Source: Sandaracinus amylolyticus (GTDB lineage: Bacteria; Myxococcota_A; Polyangia; Polyangiales; Sandaracinaceae). Taken from it: 64,000 nt of DNA. The position numbers and the translations under genes are program-made. The DNA lies in the NCBI RefSeq assembly GCF_000737325.1, contig NZ_CP011125.1, positions 4,836,001 to 4,900,000 of the forward strand, given 5' to 3'. Shown in pieces: positions 6,360-36,040 of this stretch (the stretch's first letter is position 1; each line of letters starts with the position of its first letter). The notes beneath the pieces are model-generated. The model did not search any database. It worked only from the letters and a program-made list of their open reading frames with translations, and was not told the DNA's origin.

Positions 6360-9300
6360 TCAAGCGACCGAGAGCTGGATCCCGAGGGCCTGGCGAAGGC
6401 GGAAGTACTCCTCGCTGACCGAGAAGAGCACGAGCTCCTTCACCTTCTCCTTCGGCGGCAGGTCCACCGGGCCCGCCGGGCCGAGCGCCGTCACCATGCG
6501 CGCGGCGGTCTCCAGATCGTTGCAGATCAGGAAGCCCGCGCGGCACGCCGTGAGCTCGACGCACTGCAGCCAGCGCTTGATGTCGGTGCGCGCGCCCGCC
6601 TCGAGGAAGCGCTTGCCGAGCGAGCGCAGCGCATCGATCTGCGCGGGGTTCAGCTTCGGCGCGAGCGTCTGCACCGTCGTCTGGATCGCGGGGTCGTTCG
6701 CCGGCACGAGACCGGCGATCGCGAGGCCCGCCATCAGCACCGTCTTCAGCTCCGAGTTCGACGGGAGCATCGTCCGGATGAAGTGCTCACCGCGGTAGTC
6801 GCTGAGGTGACGACCGCAGACGAACATCAGATCCTGCGGCTGGAACCCCTGCAGCAGCGTCGATCCGCAGAGCGAGCCCTGCGGCCACACCGGCAGGTGC
6901 ACGAGCCCGCCGGGCACGTCCTGGCGGAGGAAGAGACGCGGCGCCTGCATGCCGAGCACCTGCGCCACGAACCCGTAGGTGCGCGCGAGGGTCACGGTGC
7001 TGTTCGCCGGATCGACCTGGTACTTGGGCGCGAGGCCCGCGTCCTTGTCGGCCTTGCCCTTCAGGCTGAGCACCGCGGGCCAGATCACCTCGAAGATCTT
7101 CGACGTGACGAGGTCCTGCTCCGGATGCGCCAGATCCTTCAGCCAGCGCTCGTTGTCGAGGCGCGAGCTCGGACGGATCGGGCCCTTCTGGCGGTACTGC
7201 TCGAAGAACTGGTTCTGCTCGGCGTCGGCCTTCTTGAGGAAGACCAGCGTCGACGCGAGGCACCACGCCTTGTCGTACTGGCGCGCGTCGAAATAGAGCT
7301 TGTACAGCGCCTGGTACGAGTCGACGCGATACGGATCCTGACGGAGCAGCCACTGGTGCTCCGCGATCGCGTCGTCGGTGCGGCCCGGGATCACCGCGTA
7401 GAGCTCCGCGAGGATCTGGTGCTCCTGCGCGTTGTCGGGCTGGTACGCGAGGGCGATCTTGAACACGTCGACCGCCTGCTCGGGCTGCTTCATGCGGTCG
7501 CGGTAGATGACGCCGAGCGCGTGCGCGAGGTTGAACTTGAGGTCCGTGTCGGTCGAGTCCTTCAGGCGAAGGAGCATCTTCCGGTACGCACGCTCGAGCT
7601 GCTTCCAGTCCTTCTTCGCGTTGAGGATCTTGTTGATCGCCTCGAACGCCTTGAGCTGCGTCGAGTCGAGATCCAGCGACTTGTTGAAGTAGTCGATCGC
7701 CTTGTCGGCGTCCTTCACTTCATCGCGGAGGATGACCGCGATCGTGTAGGCGTACTTCGACTTCGCCGACGCGCGGTCGTCGAGATCGCTGACGCGCTGG
7801 ATGATCTCGACCGCCTGATCCCACTGCTTCGTGCTCTGGTAGAGCATCAGCAGCTTGTGAAGGATCTTGTGATCCTTCGGGCGCATCTCCGACGCGTCGG
7901 CGTAGCTCTCGATCGCCTTCTGCGGGTTGCGCAGCTTCTCGTTCCAGAGGTCGCCGATCTCGTCGAGCATCGCGAAGCGCTCTTCGCCGTCGAGCTGCTC
8001 GAGGATCTTCTTCTTGAAGTGGATCACCTGCTCCCAGTCGCTGCTCGACTGGTAGAGGCCGACCACCGCCTCGAGCGTCGGACGATGCTGCGCGTCCTCC
8101 TCGAGCGCCTTGTCGAACATGTTGAGCGCCTTGCGGCGATCACCCTGCTCGCGCTTGACGACGCCGAGCTTGAAGAAGACGTCGGTGATCTCGTCCTTCG
8201 CGAGCGCATCGCGATGATGGACGAGGAGCATCTGGTAGTACTTGAACGCCTGATCCCAGTTCGACGCCTGGTAGTAGGCGCTCGAGAGCGCGAGCAGCGT
8301 GGGCAGGTGCTGCTGATCGAGCTGCGACGCCTTGCTCAGCGCCTTGATCGCGGCGTCGGTGTCGCCGGTCTTCAGCGCCGCTTCACCGAGCATGAACGCG
8401 AGGCGGTGCTGCTCCGACGCGTCGCGCTTCGCCGAGCGCTTCACGAGCGCATCGAGGAGCGGCACGGCGTCCGCCCAGCGCTGCGTCTTCGTGTACTCCT
8501 CGGCGAGCGGGAGCGCGGCGTCCTCGTTGTCCGCGTCCTGCTTGAGCGCGGCCTCCCACACGTTGATCGCGCGGTCGTGCTCGTCGAGGCGCTCGTCGTA
8601 GAGACGACCGAGCTCGACGAGCAGCTTCGCGACGAGGCGCGGCTGCTGCTGGTACTGCGACTCCTGCTCGAGCACCTTCGCGGCGGCGAGCCAGTCGCCC
8701 GAGTCGAGGTGGATCTTCCGCATCGCCTCGAGCGACGCGAGGTGACCCGGCTCGACGTCGAGCGCGCTCTGGTACTGGTCGACCGCCGCGCTCCGATCGC
8801 CGAGCTGCTCGTCGAGCAGCTTGCCCATGCGGAAGCGCAGATCGACGACCTGCTGCGGATCGTTCAGCAGCCGCGAGAGCTGCTGCATCGTGTCGAACGC
8901 CTGGCCGTGATCACCGCGGCGCTCGTAGATCTTCGAGAGCGCCTCGAGCGCGCGCGCGTTGTTCGCGTTCAGCGAGAGGATGTTCAGGTACGCGTCGACC
9001 GCGCGATCGAGATCGCTCAGCTCGACCGAGAACACGTCGCCGATCGCGAGATACAGCTCCTGCTTCTCGTTGCGATCCGGCGTCGCCGAGACGTGGCGCT
9101 CGTACGTGTCGATGAGCTGATCCCACCGCTGCATGTTGCGGTAGAGGCGCTCGAGGCCACGCAGCGCAGCGTCGTTGCCCGAGTCGATCTCGACGACCTT
9201 CTCGAGGCGCTCGGCCGCCTTGTCCGGCTTGACGAACTCCTCCTCCCACATCGACGCGACGCGCAGGAGGATGGTGATGCGCTCCTTCTCGGTCGTGACG

Positions 9301-12300
9301 ACCTCGAACTGGCGCTCGAGGATCTGGAGCAGGTCCTGCCAGCGCTCACGCTGCGCGTAGAGGCGCTCGAGGCCCTTCAGCGCACGGAGGTTGAGCCCGT
9401 CCGCCTCGAGCACCTGGCGGTACGTCTCGATCGCCTCCTCGACGTTGCCGAGACGATCCTCGTAGGTCTCCGCGACCGCGAGCTTCGCCTCGATCAGCGC
9501 CTCGGCGTCCGAGAGCGCGCCGACCTTGCGCTGCTGGATGTCGAGGAGCGACTCCCACTCCTGACCGTTGCGATAGACCTTCTCGAGCGCCTCGAGCCCG
9601 GGCACGTAGCTCGGGTCGGCGTCGACGGCCTGCAGGTAGTAGCTGCGAGCCTGGTCCGCGATGTTGAGGTGCGTCTCGCAGAGCTCACCCATCTGCACGA
9701 AGGTCTCGGCCTTCACGCGCGGGTCGTTGGTGAGCCCGACGATGATCCCCAGCGTCTGCGCGAGCAGCTGCCACTGCTGCGTGCTGCGATAGAGATCCGC
9801 GAGCTGCTGCTGCGCCGGGACGTTGCCCGGATCGAGCTGCTGGATCTGCTGGTAGTACGGGATCGCGTACTCGGGGTGACCGAGCTCGAGCGAGTACCAC
9901 TTCGCGCAGCGCAGACAGATCGCGATCTTGACGTTCGGATCGGTCGTCGCGGTGAGCGCGGTGTTCGCCGTGTTGAGGAGGTCGTTCCACTTCCGCGTCG
10001 CGGCAGTGACCTTCTCGAGATCGTCGGCGGTCTTCTTGTCGGTGTAGTCCTCCTCCCACGCGAGGAGGAGCGTGTCGAAGGCCTGCAGCTTGTCGTCGAG
10101 GCGCTGGTCCTGGACCTCGGCGATGCGGCGCAGGAGATCCACGCGCTCCGCGGTGCTCTCCGCGGTCTCGGTGCGCGTGATGTACATCTCGACGAGGTTC
10201 TCCCAGCGCCCAGCGGCGCGGTGGAGCTCGTCGAGCTTCGCGAAGGCGTACTCGTGGCGCGGATCGAGGCCGAGGATGCGGTCGTACGCGCTCGTGCCGC
10301 GGTCCGCGTCCTCCTGCTTCTCCGCCCACGTCTGCGCGATCGCGAGGAGGACGGTGATCTTCTGCTCTGCGTCGTCGAGACCGTCGACGCGGCGCTCCAT
10401 CACCTGGACCTTGTCGGTCCACTGCGACTCGCTCGAGTGGATGCCCTCGAGGGCGTCCATCGCGGCGAAGTTGCGCGGGTTCAGATCGAGCGCCTTGTTG
10501 TAGGCGTCGACCGCGTCCATCGGCTGCTGCAGCGTGCGCTCGTAGAGCTCGCCGAGCTGCATGTAGACGGTCTCGAGCGTGCCGTCGTCGAGCGTCGCGG
10601 CGCCGACGTCGATCACGCGGTGCAGCGTGTCGACGAGGTCCTGGGTGTGACCCGCCGCGCGATGGATCTCCGCGAGCGCGAAGAGCGCCGTCGTGTTCGT
10701 CGGATCGATGTCGAGGACGCGCTGCCAGTTGTCGACGGCGTTCCGCTCGTTGCGGAGCTTCGCGTACCAGACGCGACCGAGGTCGCCGAAGATCTGAACG
10801 CGCTGCTCGTCCTCGAGGACGATCGCGGCCTCGCGGTCGAGGATGTCGACGAGCTCGGTCCAGCGCTCGCCCTTCGCGAAGAGCTCACCGAGCGCGTTGA
10901 GCGCCTCGTGATCCTCGCCGCGCAGCTCGAGCACGTCCTTCCAGAGCTGGATGGCCCGTGCGTCGTCGCCGAGGTGATCCTCGGCCACGCGCGCCATCTT
11001 CGCGAGCACGTCGGCGCGCCCGGTGTCGCCGAGGGCGACCTTCAGCTCGCGATCGAACGTCGAGTAGAGGCTCGTCCAGTCCTGCTTCTCGACGTAGATG
11101 TTCGCGAGGGACTTGATCGATCCCTCGTGCTCCGCGTCGAGACGATCGAGCACGTGCGTGTAGACGCCGACCGCCTCGTCGATGCGCCCGAGATCGTTCT
11201 CGAGCACCTGCGCGCGGCGGAAGTGCAGCTCGATCAGGTCGCGCGGATCTTCGGTCGCCGTGATGCGCTTCGCGAGGATCTCCTGGAGCGCCTCGCTCGC
11301 GCCGTGCTCGCTGTAGATGCGATCGAGCGCCTCGAGCGACTCGTGCTCCTTCGGCGACGCGCCGAGCACGAAGAGGTGCGCCTCGACCGCGCGCTGGATG
11401 TCGCCGACTTCCGTCTCGTACACGCGCGCGAGACGCTTGCCGACCGGCACGCGGACCTCGGCGGTCGCGCGCTGCTCGAGCACGTCCGCGAGCGTGCTCG
11501 CGAGCTGCTCCCAGTTGCCGAGCTGGCCCGCGAGACGCTCCGTCTCCGCGGTCGACTGCTCGTTGAGCGGATCCTCGAGGAGCACGCGCTGGTGCCACTC
11601 GAACGCGATCTGCGGCTCGCCTGCGCGATCCTCCGCGATCTCCGCCACGCGGTGCATCATCGCGACGCGCTCGTGCGCGTCGCTCTGGTGCTCGAGCAGC
11701 GCCTGCTGCACGCCGATGAGGCGCTCCCACGCCTCCTGCATGCGGTAGAGCGGCTCGAGGATCTCGCCGATCACGAGCGGCTGCACGCCCTCGGCGAAGA
11801 GGCCCTCGAGCGCGTCGAGCGCGGGCGCGTGCTCCGGCGCGGCGGCGAGGATCTCCTTGTACTGCTCGATCGCGCGATCGACCTGGCCGAGGTGCAGCTG
11901 GTGCACCTGACCGAGGCGGAACTGCAGATCGAGCATCGCCTCGGGGCTCGCCGCGAGCTGGATCTCCTTCGCGAGCGTCGTCGCGAGCTCACCCCAGCGC
12001 GAGGTCGCCTCGTACAGACGATCGAGCGCCTCGATCGCCTGCTGATGCGTCTCGTCTGCGGCGGCGACGACGTTGTAGCGAACGATCGCCGAGTCGACGT
12101 CGCCGAGCTGCACCTCGTAGAGCTGCGCGACGCGAAGCGCGAGCTCGACGCGGCGGTCGGACTGATCCGCCAGCTTCTCGACCTCGATGTCGTAGAGCCG
12201 CGCGACCTCACCGAACGCGTCGAGATCACCGGCGAGGCGCTCGAGGTTGCCGAGCGTGTCCGGATCGCCGTTGTCGAACGGCAGTGCGCGCGCGTACGCG

Positions 12301-15300
12301 TCGAACGCCGCGCGAGCGCTCTCGAGCTGGATCTCCTGCAGCTGCGCGATGCGGTGCAGGAGCTCGACCTTCTGGCGCGCGTCGTCCGCGTGCGCGGCCT
12401 GCACCTCGAGGACCGCGACGAGCTTCGCCCACTCGCCGAACTGCTGGTAGATCGGCTCGAGCACGAGCGCCGCCGCGACGGGCATCTTGCGCGCCGCGAT
12501 CATCGCCTCGAGCGCGTCGAGCGTGGGCTGGTGATCCGGCGCGACGCCGAGGATCTCCTGGTAGCCCTCGACCGCGCGCGCCGCGTCGTCGAGCTTGTGG
12601 TCGTAGAGATCCGCGATGCGGAACCGATACGAGATGACCTCGTTCGGATCGCTCGCGAGCTCCGCCTCGCGCTCGAGGATCGAGCGCAGCTCCTGCCAGT
12701 TGCCGGCAGCCTGATAGAGCGCGTCGAGGCGCCCGATCGCCATCAGGTCGTCGGGATCGATCTCGAGGATGCGCTGGTAGGTGTCGATCGCCTTCGCGCC
12801 GTCGCTGAGCTCGCGCTCGTAGACCGCGCCGACCTCGAGGTAGAGGCGCTTCTTCTCGTCGGGATCGACGACGACGTCCGCCTTGCGCGTGTAGACGTCG
12901 AGCAGCTCCGACCACTTCTCGAGCTTCAGGTAGTTCTCGACGAGCTTGTCGAGCGCCTGGAGGTCCTCGGAGTCGACGTCGAGGACCTTCTTGTAGACGT
13001 CGATGGCGTCGGTCGGACGCTCGAGCAGATCCTCGTGGATCGCCGCCGCGCGGAAGAGGTGCTCCTTCTGCTCGTCGGGCGACTCGAGCATCGCCGCCTT
13101 CACGAGGAGGATGTGCGCGAGGGGCTCGTAGCGCTCCGTCTGCTGGAAGAGCCGCTCGAGCGAGCTCGCCGCGCCGAGGTGCGTCGCGTCGAGATCGAGC
13201 ACGCGCTGGTGGTGCGCGATCGCGGTCTCGACGTCCGCGAGGTTGTCCTCGCGGATCTGCGCCGCCTTCGTGAGCAGGTGCGTCGCGAGGGGCACTTCCT
13301 CCTCGCTCGGACGGCCGCTCTCGTTCTCCTCGTAGAAGCGCGCGACGCGGTGCTCGTACACCGCCGCGAGCGCGTCGTAGTCGCCGGTCATCCCGGCGAT
13401 GCGCTCGAGCTGCTCCTGCGTGGTCGCGTTGCTCGCGTCCTCGCCGATCGCGCGCGCGAAGCTCTCGAACGCCTTCGGCGCGTCGTCGAGCGCGATCTCG
13501 TAGAGCTCCGCGATCCGGTGCAGCAGCTCGACGCGGCGCTCCGAGGCGCTCGCGATCGTCGCCTGGATCTCGTGGATCCCGATCAGCTTCGCGAACTCGT
13601 TCGCGTCGCGATAGAGCGGCTCGAGGATCTCGGTGATCACCGGCTGGTGCGCCGGCGTCGCGAGCAGACGTTCGAGCGCCGCGAGCGCCTCCGCGTTCGT
13701 CGCGTCGCGCTCGAGCACCTCGCGGTAGATCTCGATCGCCGCCTCGACCGCGCTCATGCGGGTCTCGCGCAGCGACGCGAGGCGCAGCATCAGCCGCGTC
13801 TGCTCTTCGGGCTCCTCCGCGATCGTCAGCTGGCGGCCGATGTTGTCGGCGAGATCGCTCCAGAGCTCCTGCTTCTCGAACAGCCGATCGAGCGACGAGA
13901 GCGCGGTGCGGCTCGTCGGATCGAGCTCGAGGATCTCGCGGTAGATCGAGATCGCGCTCGCCGGCTCGCCGAGCATCTGCTCGTGGATGTCGGCGACCTG
14001 CGAGAGCAGCTGCTCCTGGTGCGCGAGCTCGCCCGAGAGCTCCGCCTTGCGGCGCAGCACGCCGACGAGATCGCGATAGCGCTCGGTGCGGCGATAGAGC
14101 TCGTCGAGCGCGTCGAGGACCTCCGCGTCGCCGGGCTCCTGATCGAGCACCTTCGCGTACGCCGCGACCGCCGCGTCGACCGCGCCGAGCTGCGCGTCGT
14201 GCATGCGCGCCGCGCGGATCCAGAGGCGACGCGCGAGCGCGGGATCACCCGCCTCGCCCGCGAGCTCCTCGACGAGCTTCACGAGCTCCGCGAACCACGT
14301 GTGCTCGAGCGCGATCGCCTCGAGACGCTCCAGCGTCTCCTCGTGCTCCGGCACCGCGCGCAGACCGCGCGAGTACGCGCCGAACGCCTGCTTCGCGTCC
14401 TCGAGCTGGACGAGCGCGACCTCACCGACCTTCGTGAGGAGCTCGAGCTTGCGTTCCGGCTCCTGCGCGCTGCCGACGAGCACCTCGAGCGCGCGGATCA
14501 GCGACGTCCAGTCGCCGCGCACTTCGTAGATCGGCTCGAGGATCTGCGCCGCCGCGCCGCCGAGCTTCGTATCGCTCAGCATCGCCTCGAGCGCGAGGCG
14601 ACCGCCGTCGTGCTCGGGGACGATCGTCACGACCTCGCGCAGCAGCTCGAGCGCCTTCGCCTTGTCGTCGAGGTGCAGCTCGCTGACGCGCGCGAGTCGG
14701 AACTTGAGCGACGCGAGCTCTTCGTCGCTCGCGGGACCCAGATCGATCCGGCGCTCGAGCGTCGCTGCGAGATCGCCGTAGCGGTTCTGCTTCTCGAAGA
14801 GCGCGTCGAGCGCGCGATACGCGTCCTGCTCCTCGTCGCCCCACTCCGCGAGGATCGACTGGTACGCGTCGATCGCCTTGTCGGCGTCGGCGATCTCGGT
14901 CTCGAGCAGCGAGGCCCGCCCGTACGCCATGCGGCGGCGCGCGTCGGGATCCTGCTCGAGCTCCATGCGGCGGTCGTAGACCTCGAGGAGATCCGAGTGA
15001 CGACCGGTCTGGCGATACAGGCGCTCGAGCGCCTCGATCGCGCCCATGTGATCGCTGCGCGCGTCGTAGACCGCGCGGTACTGCGCGATGCTCTCGTCGA
15101 TCTGCCCGACCTGCTCGAGCACCGCACCGAGGCTGAGGCGCAGCTCGATCGTCGCGTCCTCGTCGGTGCCGTTCTCGATCGCCGTGCGGTACGTCGCGAT
15201 GACCTGCGCCCAGCCGTCGACGCCGGGCGCGAGCCGCGCGACGTCCTCGCGCAGCACCTCGCGCATCGGATCGAGCGCGAACGCCTCGAGGAAGCGCGCG

Positions 15301-26035: not shown

Positions 26036-27691
26036 TCAGCGACCGCACTGCGACGTGACCTGCTGTCGGTAGAAGCCCAGCTCGTCGCGCCAGTACTCAC
26101 CGTCGAAGGGCCACATCTGGTGCTCTTCGTCGACGTTGACCGTCAGACCCGCGCTGCGCGCGAGCTCGGTCATCTGCTGCTGCGCTTCGGCGTCGAGCTG
26201 ACCGCGCTGGTAGGTCGCGATCTCGAGCTCGACCGTGTCCACCTGCGTCATGAGCTCGTTGAGCTCGTCGATGAGGCGGTTGTAGCGAGCGCGCGCGAGA
26301 TCGCCCGTCTGGTCGATCGCGAACGACTTCGCCACGAAGATGTCCTGGAGGATGCGCGCGCCGAGCGAGCTGTTCTTGAACTCCGCGGGCGACTGTTCGA
26401 GGCGCTGCTCCTCGCTCTCGAGGAGACGCACGTACTCGAGGTTGCGCAGCAGCGTGCGATCCGAGAGCGCCGACGCGACGATGCCGCGGATCCGCGGGCT
26501 GAGCTGCGCCTCACCGCTCCGGACGCGCTGGAGGAACTCGAAGAACTGCTGGTTGTCCTGGAACTGCTCGAGCGTCGCGTTCAGCTCGGTCGCGACCGGG
26601 TCGTAACGCTCGTGGAACTGCGAGACCATCGCGCTCGCGTTCTCGATCTGACACGCCGAGAAGAAGACGACGGACTTCAGGACGAGCGCCTCGGGGTAGT
26701 ACGCGTCGTCGAAGTACGGCGAGAACAGCGTGTGGATGTTGCCCATCGAGCGCGCGTACTCGTCCGCGAGGAAGAACGCCCAGCTCTCCTCGAAGAGCGC
26801 GTCGAGCCAGTACTCGCTGTCCTGACCGACGCGGTTCCACGCCTCGACGGCGTTGCCGAGCAGGCGGCCGTCGATCGCGCGCTCACCGGTCTCCGCGTCG
26901 GTGCGGTTCGCGGCGGTGTAGTAGACGCGCGCGAGCGAGATCCACGCGAGGTTGCGCATGCGCTGCGTGTCCTCGACGCCCTCGACGCCCGAGTCGATCG
27001 CCTCGATGATCGCGCGGAACGCCTCGACGGCCGGCGACGCGCGGCGGAGGCGGACCTGCGAGATGCCCTCGAAGAACTTCGCGTTGACGTAGAAGCGCGA
27101 GCGGCGATCGACGCGCTGGAAGAGGCCGATCGCCTCCTCGAACTCGCCCTGGTTGTACTTGAACCGGCCCATCAGGAAGAGGAGCTGGTTGTACAGATCG
27201 GCGCTCTCGGCGGTGTTGAACTGATCGAGCTGATCGGTGCCGTAGCGACCGACGCGCTCGATGATGCCCGCGGGCTCCGGCAGCTGCGACGCGAGCTGCG
27301 CGAGCCACTGCAGCGTCTGGCCGAAGTAGAGGTGTGCCTGACCCTGCTGCGTGATCTCGTCGAAGATCGCGAGGGCCGACTGGTAGTAGCGCAGGTGGTA
27401 GAGCGCCTTGCCCAGGAAGAACTGCGCCTTCTGCACGTTCGCCGGCGCGTCGTCGGTCTCACCACCGACCACGCGCTGGAACTGCACCGACGCCTCCATG
27501 TAGCGCTCCTGCTGATAGAGCCGGAGCGCGTTCGCGAGGGCTTCGGAGGGTGGCCCTTCCGCCGGCGGTGCGGCCGGAGCGCCTGTGTCCTCGACGCTGA
27601 AGACCATGTCTTGAGCGCTCACGCGTGACGACGCGAGCGTCGATGCCGCGACGAGCGGGAGCACCCACAGGAAGACTCGATCACGCCGCAT
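26036..27691 (-). CDS. Secreted TPR protein, GltC-like
   Basis: The product has 551 residues. The signal peptide (VFLWVLPLVAASTLASSRVS) is cleaved probably after VSA, giving a mature start QDMVFSVEDTG. A short Pro/Ala linker leads into TPR-like helices (ALRLYQQERYMEASVQFQRV, QLLFLMGRFKYNQGEFEEAI) over about 400 residues, then a C-terminal helical part (ARYNRLIDELNELMTQVDTV) with a terminal QVTSQCGR. A secreted TPR protein grouped with two outer-membrane barrels is what GltC/NfsC is in Myxococcus. The mature N-terminus resembles that of the barrel protein at 34107. It has a strong own promoter and heads the minus-strand block. Confidence 0.88.
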   Translation of the reverse strand: MRRDRVFLWVLPLVAASTLASSRVSAQDMVFSVEDTGAPAAPPAEGPPSEALANALRLYQQERYMEASVQFQRVVGGETDDAPANVQKAQFFLGKALYHLRYYQSALAIFDEITQQGQAHLYFGQTLQWLAQLASQLPEPAGIIERVGRYGTDQLDQFNTAESADLYNQLLFLMGRFKYNQGEFEEAIGLFQRVDRRSRFYVNAKFFEGISQVRLRRASPAVEAFRAIIEAIDSGVEGVEDTQRMRNLAWISLARVYYTAANRTDAETGERAIDGRLLGNAVEAWNRVGQDSEYWLDALFEESWAFFLADEYARSMGNIHTLFSPYFDDAYYPEALVLKSVVFFSACQIENASAMVSQFHERYDPVATELNATLEQFQDNQQFFEFLQRVRSGEAQLSPRIRGIVASALSDRTLLRNLEYVRLLESEEQRLEQSPAEFKNSSLGARILQDIFVAKSFAIDQTGDLARARYNRLIDELNELMTQVDTVELEIATYQRGQLDAEAQQQMTELARSAGLTVNVDEEHQMWPFDGEYWRDELGFYRQQVTSQCGR

Positions 27692-28079: not shown

Positions 28080-28613
28080 ATGCAGCGAAGCGTGAGGACC
28101 GGATCGCTCCAGTTCGTGACGATCGCGGGAGTCATCCTGCTGGGGGCGATGATGTCGGGCTGCCCGGCGCGCGGCATCGGTGATCCATGCGTGCCCGAGG
28201 CCATCCCCGGCGGTGGCTTCGACGAGCGCGAGATCTACGTCGAGACGAGCTCGGTGCAGTGCCGCACGCGCACGTGCATGGTGTTCCGCCTCAACGGCGA
28301 TCCGTCGAAGGTCCTGGAAGACGGCACCTGCCCGGACAACATCGATTGTGTGAGCCGAGAGCTGCCGGTGACCGTCGACACGAGCCTCGAGCGCGTGTTC
28401 TGCACCTGCCGATGCAGCGCGACCGACGGCGACAGCAATACGCCGCTCTGTGATTGCAGCGACGGATTCCACTGCGTCGACGTGCTCACGGCGGGTGGCG
28501 CGGGCGTGCGCGGTGGCTACTGCGTGCCGAACGATCTCTGCACGGCGGACGAGGACTGCGCGTCGGGACGCTGCGACCTCGACACCGGCGTGTGCCTGGT
28601 GAACGAGACCTGA
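28080..28613 (+). CDS. Cysteine-rich lipoprotein
   Basis: The 177-residue protein has a lipobox MMSGC (Cys28) after a clear signal peptide. The mature part holds about 18 further cysteines, many in short CxC or CxxxC patterns (CTCRCSATD, CDCSDGFHCVD, CTADEDCASGRCDLDTGVC). The last part resembles the Dickkopf-like or EGF-like Cys repeats common in myxobacterial surface lipoproteins. It probably forms a disulfide-locked extracytoplasmic domain. No enzyme motif is seen and the function is unknown. It runs divergently from the GltC-like gene and is followed 24 bases later by yraN. Confidence 0.85.
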   Translation: MQRSVRTGSLQFVTIAGVILLGAMMSGCPARGIGDPCVPEAIPGGGFDEREIYVETSSVQCRTRTCMVFRLNGDPSKVLEDGTCPDNIDCVSRELPVTVDTSLERVFCTCRCSATDGDSNTPLCDCSDGFHCVDVLTAGGAGVRGGYCVPNDLCTADEDCASGRCDLDTGVCLVNET

Positions 28614-28637
28614 GCGTCGGACTCGATTCCAGATAAG

Positions 28638-29000
28638 ATGCTCGCGATGCGCACTCGCGCAGAGACGGGCAGCGAAGCAGAGGCCCTGGTCGCGGCGAAG
28701 CTCGCGAGCCAGGGCTTCGCAATTCTGGGTCGCAACGTGCGCGTCGGGCGTCTCGAGCTCGACGTGATCGCGCGGCGAGGATCGATGATCGTGGTCTGCG
28801 AGGTGCGAGCGCGATCGAGCGCGCGGATCGCGGAGCCCGTCGAGTCGATCGACCGCGCGAAGATCGCGCGCATCCGCCGCGCGACCGCGCAGTGGCTGAC
28901 GACCGCGGGGCTCGGCGGCGTGAGCGTGCGCTTCGACGCGGCGAGCGTCGTGTTCGATCAGGATCCGCCGCGCATCGAGTACTACGAAGAGGCGTTCTAG
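28638..29000 (+). CDS. yraN: UPF0102 (YraN) family endonuclease-like protein
   Basis: The 120-residue protein matches the YraN family, which has a restriction-endonuclease-like fold and an uncertain role. The core motifs are present: GSEAEALVAAKLASQGFAIL, then NVRVGRLELDVIARR and VVCEVRARS, giving the usual G..E, LD.I and EV.R catalytic-type residues, with Arg where many members have Lys. Two ATGs are possible (28638, 28647); the ribosome site does not decide. It ends nine bases before a strong hairpin shared with the convergent HAMP gene. Confidence 0.9.
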   Translation: MLAMRTRAETGSEAEALVAAKLASQGFAILGRNVRVGRLELDVIARRGSMIVVCEVRARSSARIAEPVESIDRAKIARIRRATAQWLTTAGLGGVSVRFDAASVVFDQDPPRIEYYEEAF

Positions 29001-29008
29001 AAGAACGA

Positions 29009-29045
29009 CGAAGCCCCTCGGCGCAGATCGCGCGGAGGGGCTTCG
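29009..29045. terminator. Bidirectional hairpin terminator
   Basis: A perfect 11-bp stem (29009-29019 with 29035-29045) lies between yraN and the convergent HAMP-domain gene. Its inner 15 bases can pair partly as well. It can serve both genes. Confidence 0.75.
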
Positions 29046-29066
29046 TGGCAATCGAGCGCGGAGATC

Positions 29067-29693
29067 TCAGTCGAGCGCGCGCTGCATGCGCTCCTTGAGC
29101 GCGACGAGCTCCCGCACCGCGTCCTCGCTCGCGCCTGCGGCGCGCGCGCGCTCGATGCCGGACTCGAGCAGGCCGATCTCCTCGCGCTGACGCTCTCGCA
29201 GCGTCTCGATCATCTTCTCGTACACGAGGAAGACGTCCTGCAGCTCGTCGCCCTTGCGCAGCCGGCCCTTGAGCGAGAGGTGCCCGTCGGCGACGTGCTG
29301 GAACAGGAGCTTCATCTTGTACGCCGGGCCCACCACGCGATGCGTGATGAAGATCCCGACGATCGCGAGCGCGAGGGTCAGCACGAGCACGCCGCCGACG
29401 ATCGCCGTCAGCAGGTTGCGGTCGTACTCCGCGGCCTGCTGCTCGATGAAGGCCTCGGTCTCGCCCTGCATCGCCCAGCCGATCGAGAGCATCTCGGTCT
29501 GCGCGTGCGACTGCTGGTACGCGAGGTAGCCGAGCGTGCCCGCGACCAGCACGGTCACGATCACGACGTAACCCGTGTACTTCAGCTGGAAGCCGGGATC
29601 GAGCAGGTAGTTGCGCAGGCGGCGCTTGGGCGGACCGCCACCCTGCTGTGCTCGTCCGCCAGGCGGAGCGGCGCTCTGTGCGTCGACGGCCAT
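29067..29693 (-). CDS. Two-TM HAMP-domain protein without output domain
   Basis: The 208-residue protein has two membrane spans (39-59 and 94-116) around a short periplasmic loop of about 35 residues, then a HAMP domain (117-165; THRVVGPAYKMKLLFQHVAD) and a helical end (ERQREEIGLLESGIERARAA). Chemoreceptors and sensor kinases have a long signalling or kinase domain after HAMP; here only about 40 residues follow, so it must work through a partner or as a modulator. GGAGGG upstream supports the start. It lies 105 bases downstream of the HEAT-repeat gene in the same direction. Confidence 0.85.
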   Translation of the reverse strand: MAVDAQSAAPPGGRAQQGGGPPKRRLRNYLLDPGFQLKYTGYVVIVTVLVAGTLGYLAYQQSHAQTEMLSIGWAMQGETEAFIEQQAAEYDRNLLTAIVGGVLVLTLALAIVGIFITHRVVGPAYKMKLLFQHVADGHLSLKGRLRKGDELQDVFLVYEKMIETLRERQREEIGLLESGIERARAAGASEDAVRELVALKERMQRALD

Positions 29694-29798
29694 GTCACTG
29701 CCCTCCAGACGGCGTCGCAGCTCCGTGCGGAGTTGCAGCCGTAGACGAATCGTATGAGAGGCTCCCTCGGAGATCCATTTCTTCGGCGCGCGCTGCGG

Positions 29799-30692
29799 TC
29801 ATCGCGGGCTCCCTGCGCCCATGGCGGTCCCGAGATTCCGTAGCGCGCCGTTGAGCGCGCCTTCGATCGCGGCCCGCTGGGCAGCGACCCCGGTCTCGCC
29901 CATCACGGTCGCGGCGCCGTTCAGCATGCTGCGCACGTTGCGATCGGGGTACGTCTGCACGACGACGGAGACCTGCGCGCGCACACCGCCGTCGGGACGC
30001 GTCTCGAGGCTCACGATCGAGCTGTCGAGATAGAAGCCCGTCAGCGAGCGCTGACGGATCACCTGCTGCGCCTGGCGCGGCGTCTCGGAGTCGGGCGCGA
30101 CCACGACGCCCTCGAGCTGCTGCACGCGGCTCGCGATGAACCCGCGCGCGCTCGCGAGCACCGAGCGATCGATCGCCGCGACCTTCGTGCCCGGCATGCC
30201 GACGCCGACGTAGAAACGAGGCGTGCCGCGGGGCTCGACGGTGGCTCCCGTCGACGCGGTCGTGGTGCCCGTGCCCGTGCCCGCGCCGGATCCACTCCGC
30301 GCGACACGCTCGAGCGCTCGCACCGCGCTGCGCGCCGCCTCCGCGACGGCGCGCTCGCGATCGCTCGACGCCGCACGAAGCGCGGGCAGCGCCGAAGGAT
30401 CCCCGAGACGCTCGAGCGACGAGGCCGCGGCGGCACGCACCGCGGGCTCGCTGTCGCGCAGCGCGCCGGTGAGCGCCTCGATGACCTGCGGCTCGGCCGC
30501 GACGGAGCCGAGCGAGAGCGCGGCCTGGGCGCGCACGCGGAACGCCTCCGACGTGCGCAGGAGACGCACGAGATAGTCCGTGCGTGCGTCGGCGTGCGCG
30601 AGCAGCGGCGCGATGCCCACCGAGAGCGCAGCCGAGAGGAAGGCCGACACCACCACGACGATCGCGAGCCTGCGCAGCCGCCCAGGGACCAT
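29799..30692 (-). CDS. Membrane-anchored or secreted HEAT-repeat protein
   Basis: The product has 297 residues. An N-terminal hydrophobic stretch (LAIVVVVSAFLSAALSVGIA) is a signal or anchor. Residues about 38-130 are PBS/HEAT-type repeats (FRVRAQAALSLGSVAAEP, PAVRAAAASSLERLGDPSA), then a Gly/Thr linker, then a C-terminal domain of about 140 residues with no recognised fold (GTPRFYVGVGMPGTKVAAID, VSVVVQTYPDRNVRSML). HEAT arrays bind other proteins. The function is unknown. It runs divergently from the Ig-like surface protein at 30855. Confidence 0.82.
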   Translation of the reverse strand: MVPGRLRRLAIVVVVSAFLSAALSVGIAPLLAHADARTDYLVRLLRTSEAFRVRAQAALSLGSVAAEPQVIEALTGALRDSEPAVRAAAASSLERLGDPSALPALRAASSDRERAVAEAARSAVRALERVARSGSGAGTGTGTTTASTGATVEPRGTPRFYVGVGMPGTKVAAIDRSVLASARGFIASRVQQLEGVVVAPDSETPRQAQQVIRQRSLTGFYLDSSIVSLETRPDGGVRAQVSVVVQTYPDRNVRSMLNGAATVMGETGVAAQRAAIEGALNGALRNLGTAMGAGSPR

Positions 30693-30854
30693 CCGCGCGC
30701 GCCTCCCCCCGCTCCGTCAACCCACGCCGGAGCCGCCGCTCTGACGCGCAGCCCAGGTGAATCTTCACCGGGCTGCGGCACGAGAGCCGAGCGCGAGTAT
30801 CGCCCGATCGCGCGACGCGGATCAACGGCTTTCCTTGCCGACGAAAGAGCGCAC

Positions 30855-32576
30855 GTGCATCGTGCTCTCGTGCTCGTGTGGGCCGCGATTCGTGGGCGAT
30901 CTCTCGCGCTCGTCGTCGGTGGGCTGATCCTGATCGCGCCCGCGACGGTCGGCGCGCAGCCGCGGGTCCAGGTGCGCGCCGAGACGCGCATCGAGCTGCG
31001 GCCGCGGCGGGATGCCGATCATCAGATCGTCGAGGGCGTGCTCCGCGACGATCTCGGTGCGCCGATGCCCGATCGCGCGGTGCGGGTCTCGGTGCACGAA
31101 GGAGGACCGACCGGCGTCCGGCGCGACGCGCGCGAGGTGCGCACCGGCCCGGACGGCTCCTTCTCGTCCGTCTTCGAGCTGCCGGTCGGGAGCTGGTGGG
31201 TGCGCGCCGAGTTCGACGGCGACGAGCACCACCGCCCTCACCCGCCGGTCGTGCGTCAGGTCGTGCTCGATCGCGCGCACGTGCGCCTCGACATCGACAT
31301 CGAGGGCGGGCCGACGCTCGATCTCGATCGTGCCGAGCATCGCCTCCGTGTGATCGCGAGCTCGGACGCGGGCGGCGCCGATCTCGCGGTGACGATCACC
31401 GAGAACGAGCGCGAGCTCACGCGCGGGACGACGGGCGCCGATGGATCGCTCGACGTCGTGATCCGTACCGCGGCGCTCGGCACGACACCCTCGGCGGCGC
31501 GTCTCGTCGTTCGATCGGCCGCCGATGCGCATCGCGCGGACGCGCAGACCGAGGTGCCGGTGGTGCGCTTCCGCGGGACCACGCTGACACTCGAGGCCGA
31601 TCGCTCGCAGGTCGGACGCGGCGAGAGCGTGCGGTTCGGCGGCGAGCTGCGCAGCTCCGAGGGGCCGCTCGCGCGCAAGGCGGTCGGGCTGTGGGCCGGC
31701 GGTCGCCACCTCGCGACGGTGCTCACCGACGACTCGGGCACGTACCGCGCGACGCTCGGATTCGACGAGCTCGGCGCGTTCGACGGCGCCGTGACCGCGC
31801 GTTTCGAGAGCGACGCGCCCTGGTGGGGCGCGAGCGAGGCGCCGCCGATCGCATTGCGCGTGGAGACGCCGGGCGGGACGCCGTGGACGTGGATCGTCGT
31901 GTCGATCGCCGCGAGCGCGCTCGCGTTCGTGCTCGCGGGCCGTCGTCGTCGTGCGCCCGCCGCGAGCCCGGCTGCGCTGCCGGTGGTCGCGCCTGCGCTC
32001 GAGCTCGCGGATCGCCGAGGTCTGCTGCCGGACTCGATCGACATCGCGGGCCGCGTGATCGACGCGCGACGTGAGCACGCGATCGCCGGCGCGAAGGTGC
32101 GCGCGCGGCGCGCCGACGGAGCGGTGATCGAAGTCGAGACCGAGGCGAGCGGACGCTTCGCGATGACCCTCGCGGCGGGCGCGCACGTGATCGAGATCGA
32201 CGCGCCGGGATACGAGGCGTCGCGTCATCGCGCGACGCTCCCGCACCGTGGAGAGTGGTCGGCGATCGTCGTGCGCCTCCGGAGCCTGCGCGAGCTCGCG
32301 TGGGCTCCGCTCGAGCCGCTCGCCGCGCGTCTCCTTCCGTCGGCGGATCTGTACGGCGTGTGGACGGCGCGCGATCTCGAGAGCGCCGCGCGCGCGAAGC
32401 CTCCGCTCCCGCGCGCGCTGCCCTCGCTGATCGCGGCGATCGAGCGCGCCGCCTACGCGGAGGAGCCTCCTGCGGAGGCCGAGCTGGAGTCGATCCGCGA
32501 CGCTGCGCGCACGATCGAAGCGGAGATGGATGCGCGCGCACCGCGCTCGACTCCGCGCGAGCTCGAACGTCGCTGA
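30855..32576 (+). CDS. Single-pass membrane protein with Ig-like/carboxypeptidase-regulatory domains
   Basis: GTG 30855 opens a signal peptide (SLALVVGGLILIAPATVGA); the open frame extends further upstream but only into Arg-rich non-protein-like sequence. The 573-residue product has three beta-sandwich repeats outside the membrane: one CarboxypepD_reg-like unit (VEGVLRDDLGAPMPDRAVRV), then two similar Ig-like ones. A membrane span at about 343-361 (WIVVSIAASALAFVLAG) is followed by RRRRR. The cytoplasmic side has another carboxypeptidase-regulatory-like unit (IAGRVIDARREHAIAGAKVR) and a helical tail. No catalytic site is seen; it is probably structural or adhesive. It ends 10 bases before the ftsY promoter. 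Confidence 0.8.
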   Translation: MHRALVLVWAAIRGRSLALVVGGLILIAPATVGAQPRVQVRAETRIELRPRRDADHQIVEGVLRDDLGAPMPDRAVRVSVHEGGPTGVRRDAREVRTGPDGSFSSVFELPVGSWWVRAEFDGDEHHRPHPPVVRQVVLDRAHVRLDIDIEGGPTLDLDRAEHRLRVIASSDAGGADLAVTITENERELTRGTTGADGSLDVVIRTAALGTTPSAARLVVRSAADAHRADAQTEVPVVRFRGTTLTLEADRSQVGRGESVRFGGELRSSEGPLARKAVGLWAGGRHLATVLTDDSGTYRATLGFDELGAFDGAVTARFESDAPWWGASEAPPIALRVETPGGTPWTWIVVSIAASALAFVLAGRRRRAPAASPAALPVVAPALELADRRGLLPDSIDIAGRVIDARREHAIAGAKVRARRADGAVIEVETEASGRFAMTLAAGAHVIEIDAPGYEASRHRATLPHRGEWSAIVVRLRSLRELAWAPLEPLAARLLPSADLYGVWTARDLESAARAKPPLPRALPSLIAAIERAAYAEEPPAEAELESIRDAARTIEAEMDARAPRSTPRELERR

Positions 32577-32585
32577 CGACCACCG

Positions 32586-32615
32586 TTGACCGGCGTCGAT
32601 TCGCCTCTCTATAGT
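32586..32615 (+). promoter_or_regulatory. Sigma-70 promoter for ftsY, implying a nearly leaderless mRNA
   Basis: TTGACC (32586-32591) and TATAGT (32610-32615) are 18 bases apart. The expected start of transcription is near 32622, only three to five bases before the ftsY ATG, and no Shine-Dalgarno fits in that space. Confidence 0.65.
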
Positions 32616-32625
32616 CGGCCCCGCC

Positions 32626-33942
32626 ATGGAACCGGGCACGATCGTCGCCATCGTCGTCGTCGCGGTCCTGATCGTCGTCGCGGTCGTCTTCGCGATGCGC
32701 CGTCAGGCTCCCGAAGCGCCGAGTGGCGAAGCCACTCCACCCTCTCCCGCGAAGCCGTCGCCGGAGAAGAAGGCGGAGCCCGCGCCGGCCAAGGCGCCCG
32801 AGCCTGCCAAGGCCGCACCGGAGAAGAAGCCGGTCAAGTCGGAGCCCTCGCGCCCCGCGGCCGAGAAGCCGATCGAGCCGAAGGCCGCAGAGGTGGAGAC
32901 GCCCGCGTCGCCGAAGGTCGAAGCGCCGCGAGCGGAGGCTCCGGTCGCGAAGGCCGAGGTCGCGAAGGCCGAGGCCGCGAAGCCCGCGAAGGAGAAGGCC
33001 GACGGCAAGGAGCAGGTCGCGGCGCTGCGCCGTGGCCTCGCGTCGACGCGCGGTGGGTTCATCGCGCGCCTCGCGCAGATCTTCGGCGGGAAGAAGGAGA
33101 TCGATCCCGCCCTCCTCGATCAGATCCAAGAGGTGCTGATCACCGCCGACATCGGCGTGCGCACGAGCGAGAAGATGCTCGAGACGCTGCGCGCGAAGAT
33201 GGAGCGCGCGGAGCTGCGCGACGAGGACGCCGTGTGGTCGGCGATCCGCGAGGAGGCGCGCGCGATCCTCGGCGCGTCGGCCGGTGGGATCGAGGTGCGC
33301 TCCAAGCCGACGACGATCCTCGTCGTGGGCGTGAACGGCGTCGGGAAGACGACGACGATCGGCAAGCTCGCGAGCCGCTTCCACGAAGAGGGGAAGAAGG
33401 TCGTCCTCGCCGCCGGCGATACGTTCCGCGCCGCGGCCGTGCTCCAGCTCGAGGTGTGGGCGCGCCGCGTGGGATGCGAGATCGTGAAGGGCAAGGATCG
33501 CGCGGATCCCGCGTCGGTGATCTTCGAGGCGATCAAGAAGGCGCAGGGCGACGGCGCCGACGTGGTGATCGCGGACACCGCGGGCCGACTCCACACCAAG
33601 TCGAACTTGATGGAGGAGCTCAAGAAGGTCGTCCGCACCGCAGAAAAGGCGCTCGAGCGCCCTGTGGATGAAATCCTCCTCGTGCTCGACTCAACGACTG
33701 GGCAGAACGCGATCCAGCAGGCCCAGCTCTTCAAGGATGCGATTCCGGTGAGCGGAATCGTGCTCACGAAGCTCGATGGCACCGCGAAGGGCGGTGTCGT
33801 GCTCGGCATCGTCGACGAGCACCGGATTCCCGTGCGCTACGTCGGCATCGGCGAGCGCATCGAAGATCTACGCGAGTTCGATACCGACGCGTTCGTTCAG
33901 GCTCTCTTCGCGAAGCCGGACGACGAGACGGCAGCGGCGTAG
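32626..33942 (+). CDS. ftsY: Signal recognition particle receptor FtsY
   Basis: FtsY is the GTPase that docks SRP-ribosome complexes at the inner membrane for cotranslational insertion. The 438-residue protein has an N-terminal membrane span (IVAIVVVAVLIVVAVVFAM), an Ala/Pro/Lys/Glu-rich linker (about 27-127) in place of the usual acidic A domain, and a complete NG domain: G1 GVNGVGKTTT (about 235), DTFRAAA, DTAGRLHTK (about 317) and TKLDGTAKGG (about 380). The built-in membrane span is typical of deltaproteobacterial and actinobacterial FtsY. The promoter is almost adjacent to the ATG. Confidence 0.97.
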   Translation: MEPGTIVAIVVVAVLIVVAVVFAMRRQAPEAPSGEATPPSPAKPSPEKKAEPAPAKAPEPAKAAPEKKPVKSEPSRPAAEKPIEPKAAEVETPASPKVEAPRAEAPVAKAEVAKAEAAKPAKEKADGKEQVAALRRGLASTRGGFIARLAQIFGGKKEIDPALLDQIQEVLITADIGVRTSEKMLETLRAKMERAELRDEDAVWSAIREEARAILGASAGGIEVRSKPTTILVVGVNGVGKTTTIGKLASRFHEEGKKVVLAAGDTFRAAAVLQLEVWARRVGCEIVKGKDRADPASVIFEAIKKAQGDGADVVIADTAGRLHTKSNLMEELKKVVRTAEKALERPVDEILLVLDSTTGQNAIQQAQLFKDAIPVSGIVLTKLDGTAKGGVVLGIVDEHRIPVRYVGIGERIEDLREFDTDAFVQALFAKPDDETAAA

Positions 33943-34106: not shown

Positions 34107-35117
34107 ATGAGGAAGGCTTCCGTAGCGCTGCTCGCACGTGCACTCGCGGGAGCGGTGCCGCTGCCACGCGGCGCAGTGCTTCTCGCCGGTGCGGCGCTCG
34201 TCAGCGGCTCAGTGCTGCTCGCGGGTCCAGCGCACGCACAGGACATGGAGTTCAGTCTCGACGAGGCCGAGCAGCAACAGCAGCAAGAAGGCTCTGCTGA
34301 AGGCGCTGACATGAGCTTCGAAGAGGGCGAGACGCAGCCGACGCAAGAGTCGGGCAGCGGCGACGTCATCGGTGATCTCGCGACGTCCGAAGCGGGCGCT
34401 GCGGAGGGCGAGACGCGCGAGGCGCCGACTCAGGTGCAGGAAGCGCGTGAAGAGATCTTCGCGGTGCAGCAGGTCTATGCGCTGCGCATCAATCGCGTGG
34501 AGATCACGCCGACGGTCTCGTTCTCGCTGAACGATCCCTTCGTCCAGCACACCGGCGTCGGAGTCGGGCTCAACTACTGGTGGACGAACGTTCTCGCGCT
34601 CGGCGTGAACTTCATCTGGTACGAGGGCCTCGAGAACGAGTCGGACATCGGCTATTTCGTGCGTCGCGCGACCCGCCTCGCGGTGCCGGTCAACAGCTAC
34701 CAGTTCGGCGCGCACCTCGCGTTCACGTACGTGCCGATCTACGGCAAGTTCGCGATGTTCAACGAGTTCATCTTCCAGTACGACATCTACGTGCTGGGCG
34801 GCGTGGGCCTGATGAACACGCGGCCGATCCCCGTGATCGACCCCGAGGTCCGCAGCTTCAACTTCGACATCCGCGTCGCGTTCAACGTGGGTATCGGTCT
34901 GCGCGTGTTCGTGACTCGCTGGCTCGCGATCGTCGCCGAGCTCCGCGACTACATGTATCTCGAGCAGCTCGAGAATCTGGAAGTCGCGCTCGGCGCGGAG
35001 CGCACGAATCCGGAGACGTGGACCCAGAACAGCCCGGCGTTCATCAACAACGTCACGGCGCATCTCGGTCTGACGATCTTCCTGCCCTTCGATTTCGAGT
35101 ACCGCCTCCCGCGGTGA
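34107..35117 (+). CDS. Outer-membrane beta-barrel-type protein, GltA/GltB-like
   Basis: The 336-residue protein has a long signal peptide (about 44 residues, ending GPAHA) and a mature start QDMEFSLDEAE, followed by a Gln/Glu-rich tether with a second copy of the motif (DMSFEEGE). From about residue 135 the chain alternates in the manner of beta strands with aromatic girdles (NRVEITPTVSFSLNDPFVQH, VGVGLNYWWTNVLALGVNFI, FNFDIRVAFNVGIGLRVFV). AAGGGG before ATG 34107 supports the start. It is paralogous to the next gene, 17 bases downstream. GltA and GltB of Myxococcus are adjacent outer-membrane barrels of this kind; assignment to A or B is not possible by eye. Confidence 0.85.
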   Translation: MRKASVALLARALAGAVPLPRGAVLLAGAALVSGSVLLAGPAHAQDMEFSLDEAEQQQQQEGSAEGADMSFEEGETQPTQESGSGDVIGDLATSEAGAAEGETREAPTQVQEAREEIFAVQQVYALRINRVEITPTVSFSLNDPFVQHTGVGVGLNYWWTNVLALGVNFIWYEGLENESDIGYFVRRATRLAVPVNSYQFGAHLAFTYVPIYGKFAMFNEFIFQYDIYVLGGVGLMNTRPIPVIDPEVRSFNFDIRVAFNVGIGLRVFVTRWLAIVAELRDYMYLEQLENLEVALGAERTNPETWTQNSPAFINNVTAHLGLTIFLPFDFEYRLPR

Positions 35118-35134
35118 TCAGAGGAGCGCTGGAC

Positions 35135-36040
35135 ATGCTCACTCAGAAGAATCGTCGCCTCCTCGGCGTCCTCGCAGCGCTCGCGCTCGGGACAGCGATC
35201 ACCACGATCGGCAGTGCTGCGAGCGCGCAGGACGTGCAGATCACCGGCCCTCTCGCCGGTCAGCCCGCGGTGCGCCACATGCGCCAGTACCGCGTCAATC
35301 GCTTCTTCATCACTCCGTCGGTCGGCTACACGCTGCAGGACGAGTTCTCGCGCGCGCTGTTCTTCGGCGGCTCGCTCGGGTTCCACTTCACCGACTGGCT
35401 CGGAATCGGTGCGTGGGGCGGCGGCGCCCCGATCGACATCGACACCGACCTCACGTCGCAGATCGCCGACAACGGCCAGGTGAGCCCGCAGAACCGGCTC
35501 AGCCTTCCGAGCGCGGCGGGCTTCCCCGACCAGGTCGGGCGCATCCGCTGGGGCGCGTCGCTGCACGTCCTGTTCATCCCGCTTCGCGGCAAGCTCTCGC
35601 TGTTCCAGGCGGGCTTCGTCGACACCGACCTCTACATCCTCGCGGGTGTGGGCCTGTTCGGCGTCGACGAGCGCCAGGACGTGTCGCGCGAGCAGTATCG
35701 CGCCGCCTGCGTGGATCAGCCGCAGCCGCCGGGGAGCAGCGCGCCGGACTGCCTCGCGACGCAGTCGCGCACGTCGCGCATCCTGCCCGCGCCGATGCTC
35801 GGTGTCGGTCTGAGCATGTACTTCAACGAGTTCATCGGTCTGCAGATCGAGTGGCGCGCGTTCCCGTTCTCGTGGCGCGCGAGCGGCTTCGACGAGAGCG
35901 GTGAGGACGCGAACGGCGAGCCCGGCAGCGGGTTCCCCGACGAGCAGATCAACGGCTCGGACGCGCGCACGACGTTCAATCAGATGCTGAACATCGGCCT
36001 GGTGATCTACCTGCCGACGGAAGTTCAGATCACGGACTGA
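35135..36040 (+). CDS. Outer-membrane beta-barrel-type protein, paralogue of the preceding gene
   Basis: The 301-residue protein has a signal peptide (LLGVLAALALGTAITTIGSA, cleavage after AASA). The mature part begins QDVQITGPLAG and shares with its neighbour the line [VI]NR..ITP[ST]V...L.D.F and a following GG.LGFHFTDWLGIGAW strand pair. Aromatic, alternating strands fill most of the chain, with one longer loop containing a Cys pair (RAACVDQPQPPGSSAPDC). GAGGAG lies upstream of the ATG. It is the last gene before a strong terminator, so the two barrel genes form a two-gene operon. Predicted partner of the periplasmic TPR proteins encoded at 20-27 kb. Confidence 0.85.
   Translation: MLTQKNRRLLGVLAALALGTAITTIGSAASAQDVQITGPLAGQPAVRHMRQYRVNRFFITPSVGYTLQDEFSRALFFGGSLGFHFTDWLGIGAWGGGAPIDIDTDLTSQIADNGQVSPQNRLSLPSAAGFPDQVGRIRWGASLHVLFIPLRGKLSLFQAGFVDTDLYILAGVGLFGVDERQDVSREQYRAACVDQPQPPGSSAPDCLATQSRTSRILPAPMLGVGLSMYFNEFIGLQIEWRAFPFSWRASGFDESGEDANGEPGSGFPDEQINGSDARTTFNQMLNIGLVIYLPTEVQITD

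What the first reader, a model, noticed from the sequence alone, without database searches (positions are those of the whole stretch)
6360..36040. A nearly complete Glt/Nfs-like trans-envelope complex in one locus
Seen: on the minus strand, in order, a secreted TPR protein, a 1,258-residue periplasmic TPR protein, a TPR lipoprotein, an 85-residue secreted protein, an FHA-TM-AgmX protein, a secreted TPR protein and a 3,356-residue TPR protein, with two outer-membrane-type proteins on the plus strand 6 kb away. Known (from memory of Myxococcus work): GltA/B are outer-membrane barrels, GltC and GltD are TPR proteins, GltE a TPR lipoprotein, GltF small and periplasmic, GltG an FHA/TonB protein, GltI a giant TPR protein; in Myxococcus they lie in separate loci. 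Inference: this is a consolidated, perhaps ancestral, version. GltJ, GltH and the AglRQS motor are not in the window.
Basis: partly seen in the sequence, partly recalled or inferred. Interest (0 to 1): 0.8.

Follow-up and report, generated by a model that had tools for sequence, protein, structure and literature searches.

The report
Order-wide Glt gliding-machine gene locus
This stretch carries, almost end to end, the genes for the cell-envelope part of the machine that drives gliding in myxobacteria; the layout is the normal, inherited one in this bacterial group rather than an oddity, but it holds one always-present gene (a small repeat-protein that looks like a lipoprotein) that the textbook parts list of the machine leaves out.

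Summary
Seven same-strand genes (6360-27691, minus) are, in order, GltC, GltD, GltE, GltF, GltG, an unassigned TPR protein ("T1") and the giant GltI. Two OmpA-like outer-membrane barrels follow on the plus strand. GltC, GltG and GltF hit curated Glt/Cgl models; both barrels pass the OMP_myx_plus cut-off. The genome has a single full-length GltG. GltJ exists but lies 1.5 Mb away. The best AglRQS candidate is 4.3 Mb away. No GltH or GltK was identified.

The locus is not exceptional. Wherever GltG and GltI fall on one contig in the sampled Myxococcota they lie 11-15 kb apart (43 of 43 genomes), and a GltC tree is one clade following kinship: vertical inheritance of a compact locus. Published work already reported grouped G1+G2 genes in Anaeromyxobacter and one-piece nfs clusters, so "consolidated, perhaps ancestral" is supported but mostly not new.

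What looks new is T1. It sits between GltG and GltI in all 28 complete examples, is absent from 7 related clusters lacking GltI, and has a conserved lipoprotein-type cysteine. M. xanthus has agmV (MXAN_4865) at this place, dismissed as not a gene in 2011, yet its protein was later found in vesicles. Whether T1 is AgmV could not be tested.

The parts
26036..27691 (-). GltC-type periplasmic TPR protein (551 aa, signal peptide)
   Evidence: NCBIfam NF033756 GltC 271.8 bits over residues 51-549 (cut-off 450); best GltC match among the own-genome clusters examined (129 and 114 bits for the two paralogues); tree
22065..25841 (-). GltD-type periplasmic TPR protein (1258 aa, from the ATG at MGRNRTP)
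   Evidence: size, position and order as M. xanthus gltD (1191 aa, PMC3169522); TPR matches only, no NCBIfam GltD model hit; conserved in place in relatives
20419..22029 (-). GltE-type TPR lipoprotein (536 aa; lipobox-like AAGC)
   Evidence: NF033758 GltE 61.4 bits, no better than a generic TPR model (MamA 64 bits); assignment rests on place, lipobox and conservation
19869..20126 (-). GltF/CglF, 85-aa secreted protein
   Evidence: NF033764 CglF 71.1 bits (cut-off 90) over nearly the whole model
17610..19682 (-). GltG: cytoplasmic FHA, one TM, glycine-rich linker, periplasmic AgmX/TonB_C domain (690 aa)
   Evidence: NF033760 GltG 437.9 bits full length (cut-off 650), myxo_SS_tail 111 bits; only full-length GltG in the genome
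16541..17410 (-). T1: all-TPR protein, probably a lipoprotein (289 aa), no Glt name
   Evidence: between GltG and GltI in 28 of 28 complete loci, absent from 7 clusters without GltI; near-invariant Cys22 after the signal peptide; model pLDDT 93, TPR solenoid
6360..16430 (-). GltI: 3356-aa cytoplasmic TPR protein with a 270-aa C-terminal domain without a Pfam family
   Evidence: no signal peptide; conserved whole in relatives; C-terminal domain 11-15 kb from GltG in 43 of 43 genomes where both are on one contig; Pfam none
34107..35117 (+). GltA/GltB-type outer-membrane barrel 1 (336 aa)
   Evidence: TIGR04565 79-81 bits, cut-off 60; 8-strand barrel model, best PDB matches OmpA transmembrane domain
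35135..36040 (+). GltA/GltB-type outer-membrane barrel 2 (301 aa), paralogue of barrel 1
   Evidence: TIGR04565 60.6 bits in the genome search; paralogous to barrel 1 (57-58 bits)
28080..33942 (.). intervening genes kept in order in relatives: lipoprotein-like ORF, YraN-like, 208-aa two-TM protein, HEAT protein, CarboxypepD_reg protein, FtsY; no evidence that they belong to the machine
   Evidence: FtsY TIGR00064 331.8 bits; synteny; Pfam
2360..6284 (-). housekeeping flank: TsaE then CarB, downstream of GltI
   Evidence: PF02367 113 bits; NF003671 1650 bits

Best explanation
The locus encodes the envelope-spanning transducer of a Glt-type machine, in the arrangement inherited by the order Polyangiales and related Myxococcota. 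SHOWN here by sequence: the parts, their order, their conservation and their likely compartments. INFERRED from M. xanthus work: a proton-driven AglRQS-type motor (encoded elsewhere) in the inner membrane engages GltG, whose FHA end faces the cytoplasm with the giant GltI scaffold and whose AgmX/TonB-like end reaches into the periplasm. Periplasmic TPR proteins GltC, GltD and the lipoprotein GltE, with GltF, carry the movement to two OmpA-like barrels (GltA/GltB) in the outer membrane, which hold the surface contacts, so that travelling complexes move the cell or its surface material. T1 is proposed as an extra periplasm-facing TPR lipoprotein that works with GltI-type machines, for instance in assembling or coupling the barrel subcomplex (inference).
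For: Curated-model hits for GltC, GltG, GltF and the barrels; single full-length GltG in the genome; GltJ elsewhere in the genome, matching M. xanthus GltJ structures 7z3c (GYF, E 5e-12) and 7zok (zinc ribbon, E 8e-7); conserved order in relatives; GltG-GltI spacing 11.1-15.4 kb in 43 of 43; one clade following kinship in the GltC tree, 99/99 support; AglRQS-like ExbB-ExbD-ExbD operon at C1:583.0-585.0 kb whose type sits 4-8 kb from a GltG in two other genomes, while the other two ExbB-ExbD-ExbD trios are followed by TonB receptors. S. amylolyticus, the likely source, is described as gliding (PMC5010890).
Against: Model scores stay below NCBIfam equivalog cut-offs. No M. xanthus Glt, Nfs or Agl protein sequence (other than two short GltJ chains) could be compared directly. 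GltH and GltK/CglC were not identified. GltI is found in every genome of the order in the sample, including genomes of about 3.1-3.3 Mb, so a role other than gliding in some members is possible. No expression or phenotype data.
Confidence: 0.72

Rival explanations
1. An Nfs-like machine: the same parts used to move or wrap polysaccharide over the cell surface (spore coat or capsule) and not to glide.
For: Nfs is built from homologues of GltA-H in one cluster and Nfs/Glt are said to be a recent duplication (PMC3858216), so this locus may predate the split; the species is described as forming spores; window GltC scores on the GltC model about like clusters without GltI (272 versus 219-267 bits).
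Against: GltI and GltJ homologues are present, which Nfs lacks (PMC3858216); GltI lies in the same locus in all complete examples.
Confidence: 0.15
2. A general envelope transport machine (polysaccharide, lipid or protein) of the whole order, with gliding only in some species.
For: The GltI C-terminal domain was found in every order-level genome of the sample, including small ones; published work proposes that the core complex has non-motility functions (PMC3169522, PMC3858216).
Against: Gliding is described for this species; the part list including GltI and GltJ is that of the motility machine.
Confidence: 0.2
3. A chance neighbourhood of unrelated TPR, FHA and barrel genes.
For: TPR proteins are abundant, and GltE and T1 score no better on Glt models than on generic TPR models.
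Against: Full-length GltG and GltC model hits, strict conservation of order across classes, 43 of 43 spacing.
Confidence: 0.02

Closest known systems
M. xanthus Glt machine: G1 (gltD-E-F-G-H-I-J), G2 (gltK-B-A-C), M1 aglRQS (PMC3169522)
   Same: GltA/B-type barrels, C, D, E, F, G and I, with D-E-F-G-...-I in the same order
   Different: GltC joined to D-I in one run; barrels on the opposite strand beside ftsY; T1 in the place of gltH; no GltH/K identified; GltJ and motor unlinked
M. xanthus Nfs spore-coat machine, nfsA-H (PMC3858216)
   Same: one-piece cluster of A-G homologues
   Different: Nfs lacks GltI, J and K; here GltI and T1 are present and NfsH/GltH is not identified
Anaeromyxobacter grouped G1+G2 homologues (PMC3169522)
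   Same: G1 and G2 genes grouped on the chromosome
   Different: exact order there not seen by me (supplementary figure not held)
A-B-C-D-E-(F)-G clusters without GltI in other Myxococcota (G073, G193, G003 and others)
   Same: barrels, GltC, GltD, GltE, GltG, sometimes GltF
   Different: no T1, no GltI; three have an ExbB-ExbD-TonB set upstream; separate clade in the GltC tree
AgmV, MXAN_4865 of M. xanthus (PMC3169522, PMC4158809)
   Same: lies between gltH and gltI, the place T1 holds here; detected in outer-membrane vesicles
   Different: sequence not available here, so homology with T1 is untested; dismissed as probably not a gene in 2011

Membership tests
Glt gliding machine | GltG: FHA + TM + AgmX/TonB periplasmic domain | tested here: met
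   NF033760 437.9 bits full length, below the equivalog cut-off of 650
Glt gliding machine | GltC periplasmic TPR protein | tested here: met
   NF033756 271.8 bits, below cut-off 450
Glt gliding machine | GltD and GltE TPR proteins next to GltF-GltG | tested here: met
   by order, size and signal only; sequence models are no better than generic TPR
Glt gliding machine | GltF small periplasmic protein | tested here: met
   CglF model 71.1 bits, cut-off 90
Glt gliding machine | GltA and GltB OmpA-like barrels | tested here: met
   two TIGR04565 barrels over cut-off, OmpA-like model for barrel 1; which is A and which is B not resolved
Glt gliding machine | GltI giant cytoplasmic TPR protein | tested here: met
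   3356 aa, no signal peptide, in the same place relative to GltG; not compared with MXAN_4863
Glt gliding machine | GltJ | tested here: met
   in the genome, C1:6328949, matches 7z3c and 7zok; not in the locus
Glt gliding machine | GltH and GltK/CglC | tested here: inconclusive
   not seen in the locus; no models available; a third TIGR04565 barrel lies at C1:7258996 beside a paralogous cluster
Glt gliding machine | AglRQS motor (one TolQ-like, two TolR-like) | tested here: inconclusive
   candidate at C1:583.0-585.0 kb (237/158/179 aa) with a divergent paralogous trio beside it; no AglRQS sequence to compare
Glt gliding machine | required for gliding | not testable with these tools
   needs mutants
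Nfs sporulation machine | cluster of A-H homologues without GltI, J, K | tested here: not met
   GltI present in the locus, GltJ in the genome

The most novel reading that the evidence does not exclude
T1 is an overlooked obligate part of every GltI-type machine: an outer-membrane TPR lipoprotein coded between gltG and gltI throughout Myxococcota, and M. xanthus AgmV (MXAN_4865), struck off the gene list in 2011, is its counterpart.
Probability: 0.4. Interest if true: 0.62.

Novelty: new member of a known kind. Interest (0 to 1): 0.42.

Why it matters
The Glt machine is the model for focal-adhesion gliding in bacteria, and its parts list comes almost wholly from one species in which the genes are split and rearranged. 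The order-wide compact locus gives a cleaner parts list by comparison: it supports C, D, E, F, G, I and the two barrels as linked parts, shows that H, J, K and the motor are not tied to the locus, and points to one consistently present extra lipoprotein that can be tested at once in M. xanthus.

Tried and rejected
Motor candidates at C1:2363 kb and C1:8130 kb (ExbB-ExbD-ExbD): rejected as AglRQS because a TonB-dependent receptor follows each and their ExbDs are short. T1 as Tgl: a better Tgl-model match lies elsewhere in the genome (95.6 versus 58.5 bits). T1 as GltH: GltH is described as a 209-aa outer-membrane barrel protein, T1 is an all-TPR solenoid. Glt versus Nfs by GltC model score: not discriminating. 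PDB searches with GltC and barrel 1 gave nothing useful. Foldseek on T1 gave only generic TPR solenoids. The papers on GltJ (Attia 2024) and CglB (Islam 2023) are not held.

Full report
WHERE. The window is C1:4836001-4900000 of a single-contig genome of 10,327,335 bases. The size and the single contig fit Sandaracinus amylolyticus DSM 53668 (10.33 Mb, Polyangiales; PMC5010890).

WHAT IS THERE. Reading on the minus strand: GltC-type 26036-27691, GltD-type 22065-25841, GltE-type lipoprotein 20419-22029, GltF 19869-20126, GltG 17610-19682, T1 16541-17410, GltI 6360-16430, then TsaE and CarB. On the plus strand: FtsY 32626-33942, barrel 1 34107-35117, barrel 2 35135-36040. Between gltC and the barrels lie further genes with no known link to motility.

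SPECIFICITY. NCBIfam gives GltG 437.9 bits over the full model, GltC 271.8 and CglF (GltF) 71.1; all three are below the cut-offs that NCBI sets for naming M. xanthus-like equivalogs. Both barrels pass the TIGR04565 cut-off in the genome search; the genome has three members of that family in all. GltD, GltE, GltI and T1 cannot be told from generic TPR proteins by these models; their assignment rests on order, size, signal and conservation. The genome has one full-length GltG and at least two partial, much diverged Glt-like clusters, near C1:4.128-4.139 Mb and C1:7.244-7.259 Mb, whose GltC-like proteins score 114 and 129 bits. The window locus is the best match in its genome.

PARTS ELSEWHERE. 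GltJ: a 629-aa protein at C1:6328949 matches the two solved M. xanthus GltJ domains, 7z3c and 7zok. Motor: of the MotA/ExbB places in the genome, one is Tol (tolQ over cut-off), two are ExbB-ExbD-TonB sets, and two ExbB-ExbD-ExbD trios are followed by TonB-dependent receptors. The pair of divergent ExbB-ExbD-ExbD operons at C1:583.0-587.3 kb has ExbD sizes (158/179 and 185/200 aa) near those of AglQ and AglS (162 and 194; PMC3169522). Its ExbB is 63-100% identical across the order, and the same type lies about 4 kb and 8 kb from a GltG in G154 and G349. It is the best AglRQS candidate, 4.27 Mb from the locus, but no AglRQS sequence was available to prove it.

COMPARATIVE ORDER. In 42 regions read (including the window), GltG, T1 and GltI occur in that order in 28; no region has GltI without T1; the one with T1 and no GltI ends at a contig edge; seven clusters with at least 11 kb of DNA after GltG have neither (the script's list of seven included G094, whose contig ends at GltG; I replaced it by G174, which has GltD, E, F and G without GltC found). 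In the order Polyangiales the block from barrels and ftsY to gltI is also kept. Across the listed matches of two 377-genome searches, GltG and the GltI C-terminal domain are on the same contig in 43 genomes and then always 11.1-15.4 kb apart. A maximum-likelihood GltC tree puts the T1/GltI type in one clade (99/99), the clusters without GltI in another (100/99), with branching by kinship inside. The own-genome paralogues are long branches that meet, so their place is unsure.

T1. Twenty T1 proteins align over their length (25-70% identity to the window copy) with a near-invariant cysteine at residue 22, at the end of the signal peptide. Several copies have canonical lipobox sequences (for example LVAGC, LLAGC); the copies of the window's family have an unusual residue before the cysteine (GGNC, GGQC), so lipoprotein status is likely but not certain. 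The AlphaFold model is a TPR solenoid (pLDDT 93.4), and Foldseek returns only generic TPR folds. In M. xanthus the place before gltI holds MXAN_4865/4864 (agmV), hit by transposons in gliding screens, then set aside as probably not genes (PMC3169522). A later proteome lists AgmV MXAN_4865 among outer-membrane-vesicle proteins (PMC4158809). Position and compartment fit T1; sequence homology was not testable here.

BARRELS. Barrel 1 is predicted as eight strands (residues 130-326, mostly pLDDT above 80) after a disordered stretch, and its best solved matches are OmpA transmembrane domains, as described for GltA and GltB (PMC4488436).

WHAT IS KNOWN ALREADY. M. xanthus has the parts in G1, G2 and M1 (PMC3169522). 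The same paper reports one-piece core clusters outside the Deltaproteobacteria and grouped G1/G2 genes in Anaeromyxobacter, and studied Sorangium, Haliangium and Plesiocystis. nfsA-H is a single cluster (PMC3858216). So the locus is a member of a known kind, and its consolidation is not a discovery in itself.

MECHANISM. Shown: parts, order, likely compartments, conservation, presence of GltJ and of a candidate motor in the genome. Inferred from M. xanthus: motor to GltG and GltI, to periplasmic TPR proteins, to barrels and surface. Inferred without direct precedent: T1 as a periplasm-facing lipoprotein adaptor of GltI-type machines. Function as gliding is likely but not shown; Nfs-like or other surface transport remains open.

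Noticed in passing
L182:5373-12978 (G193), also G073 and G003 regions: Clusters of the form ExbB-ExbD-TonB, a large ORF, a lipoprotein-like ORF, two barrels, then GltC-D-E-(F)-G in other Myxococcota classes: a Glt/Nfs-like core apparently tied to a TonB-type motor. In G193 the large ORF carries a TonB_C domain joined to a TonB-receptor plug.
   Followed up: partly
window 6363-7172: The last 270 residues of GltI form a non-TPR domain without a Pfam family; two other large proteins of the genome share it at 33-35% identity (C1:8882200, C1:7308794).
   Followed up: partly
L233:7007-11270 (C1:583.0-587.3 kb): Two divergent ExbB-ExbD-ExbD operons side by side, the first followed by a 411-aa protein with one predicted TM and no Pfam match.
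   Followed up: partly
L226:28-11206 (C1:4.128-4.139 Mb) and L224/L225 (C1:7.244-7.259 Mb): Two further, much diverged Glt-like clusters in the same genome (GltC-like, GltE-like, AgmX proteins; one with the third TIGR04565 barrel).
   Followed up: partly
window 29067-29693: A 208-aa protein with two apparent TM stretches and no Pfam or NCBIfam match is kept next to gltC in the order; function unknown.
   Followed up: no
L136:18399-19421 (G353, same genus): A second, shorter GltE-like gene between gltE and gltF in the sister species, absent from the window.
   Followed up: no
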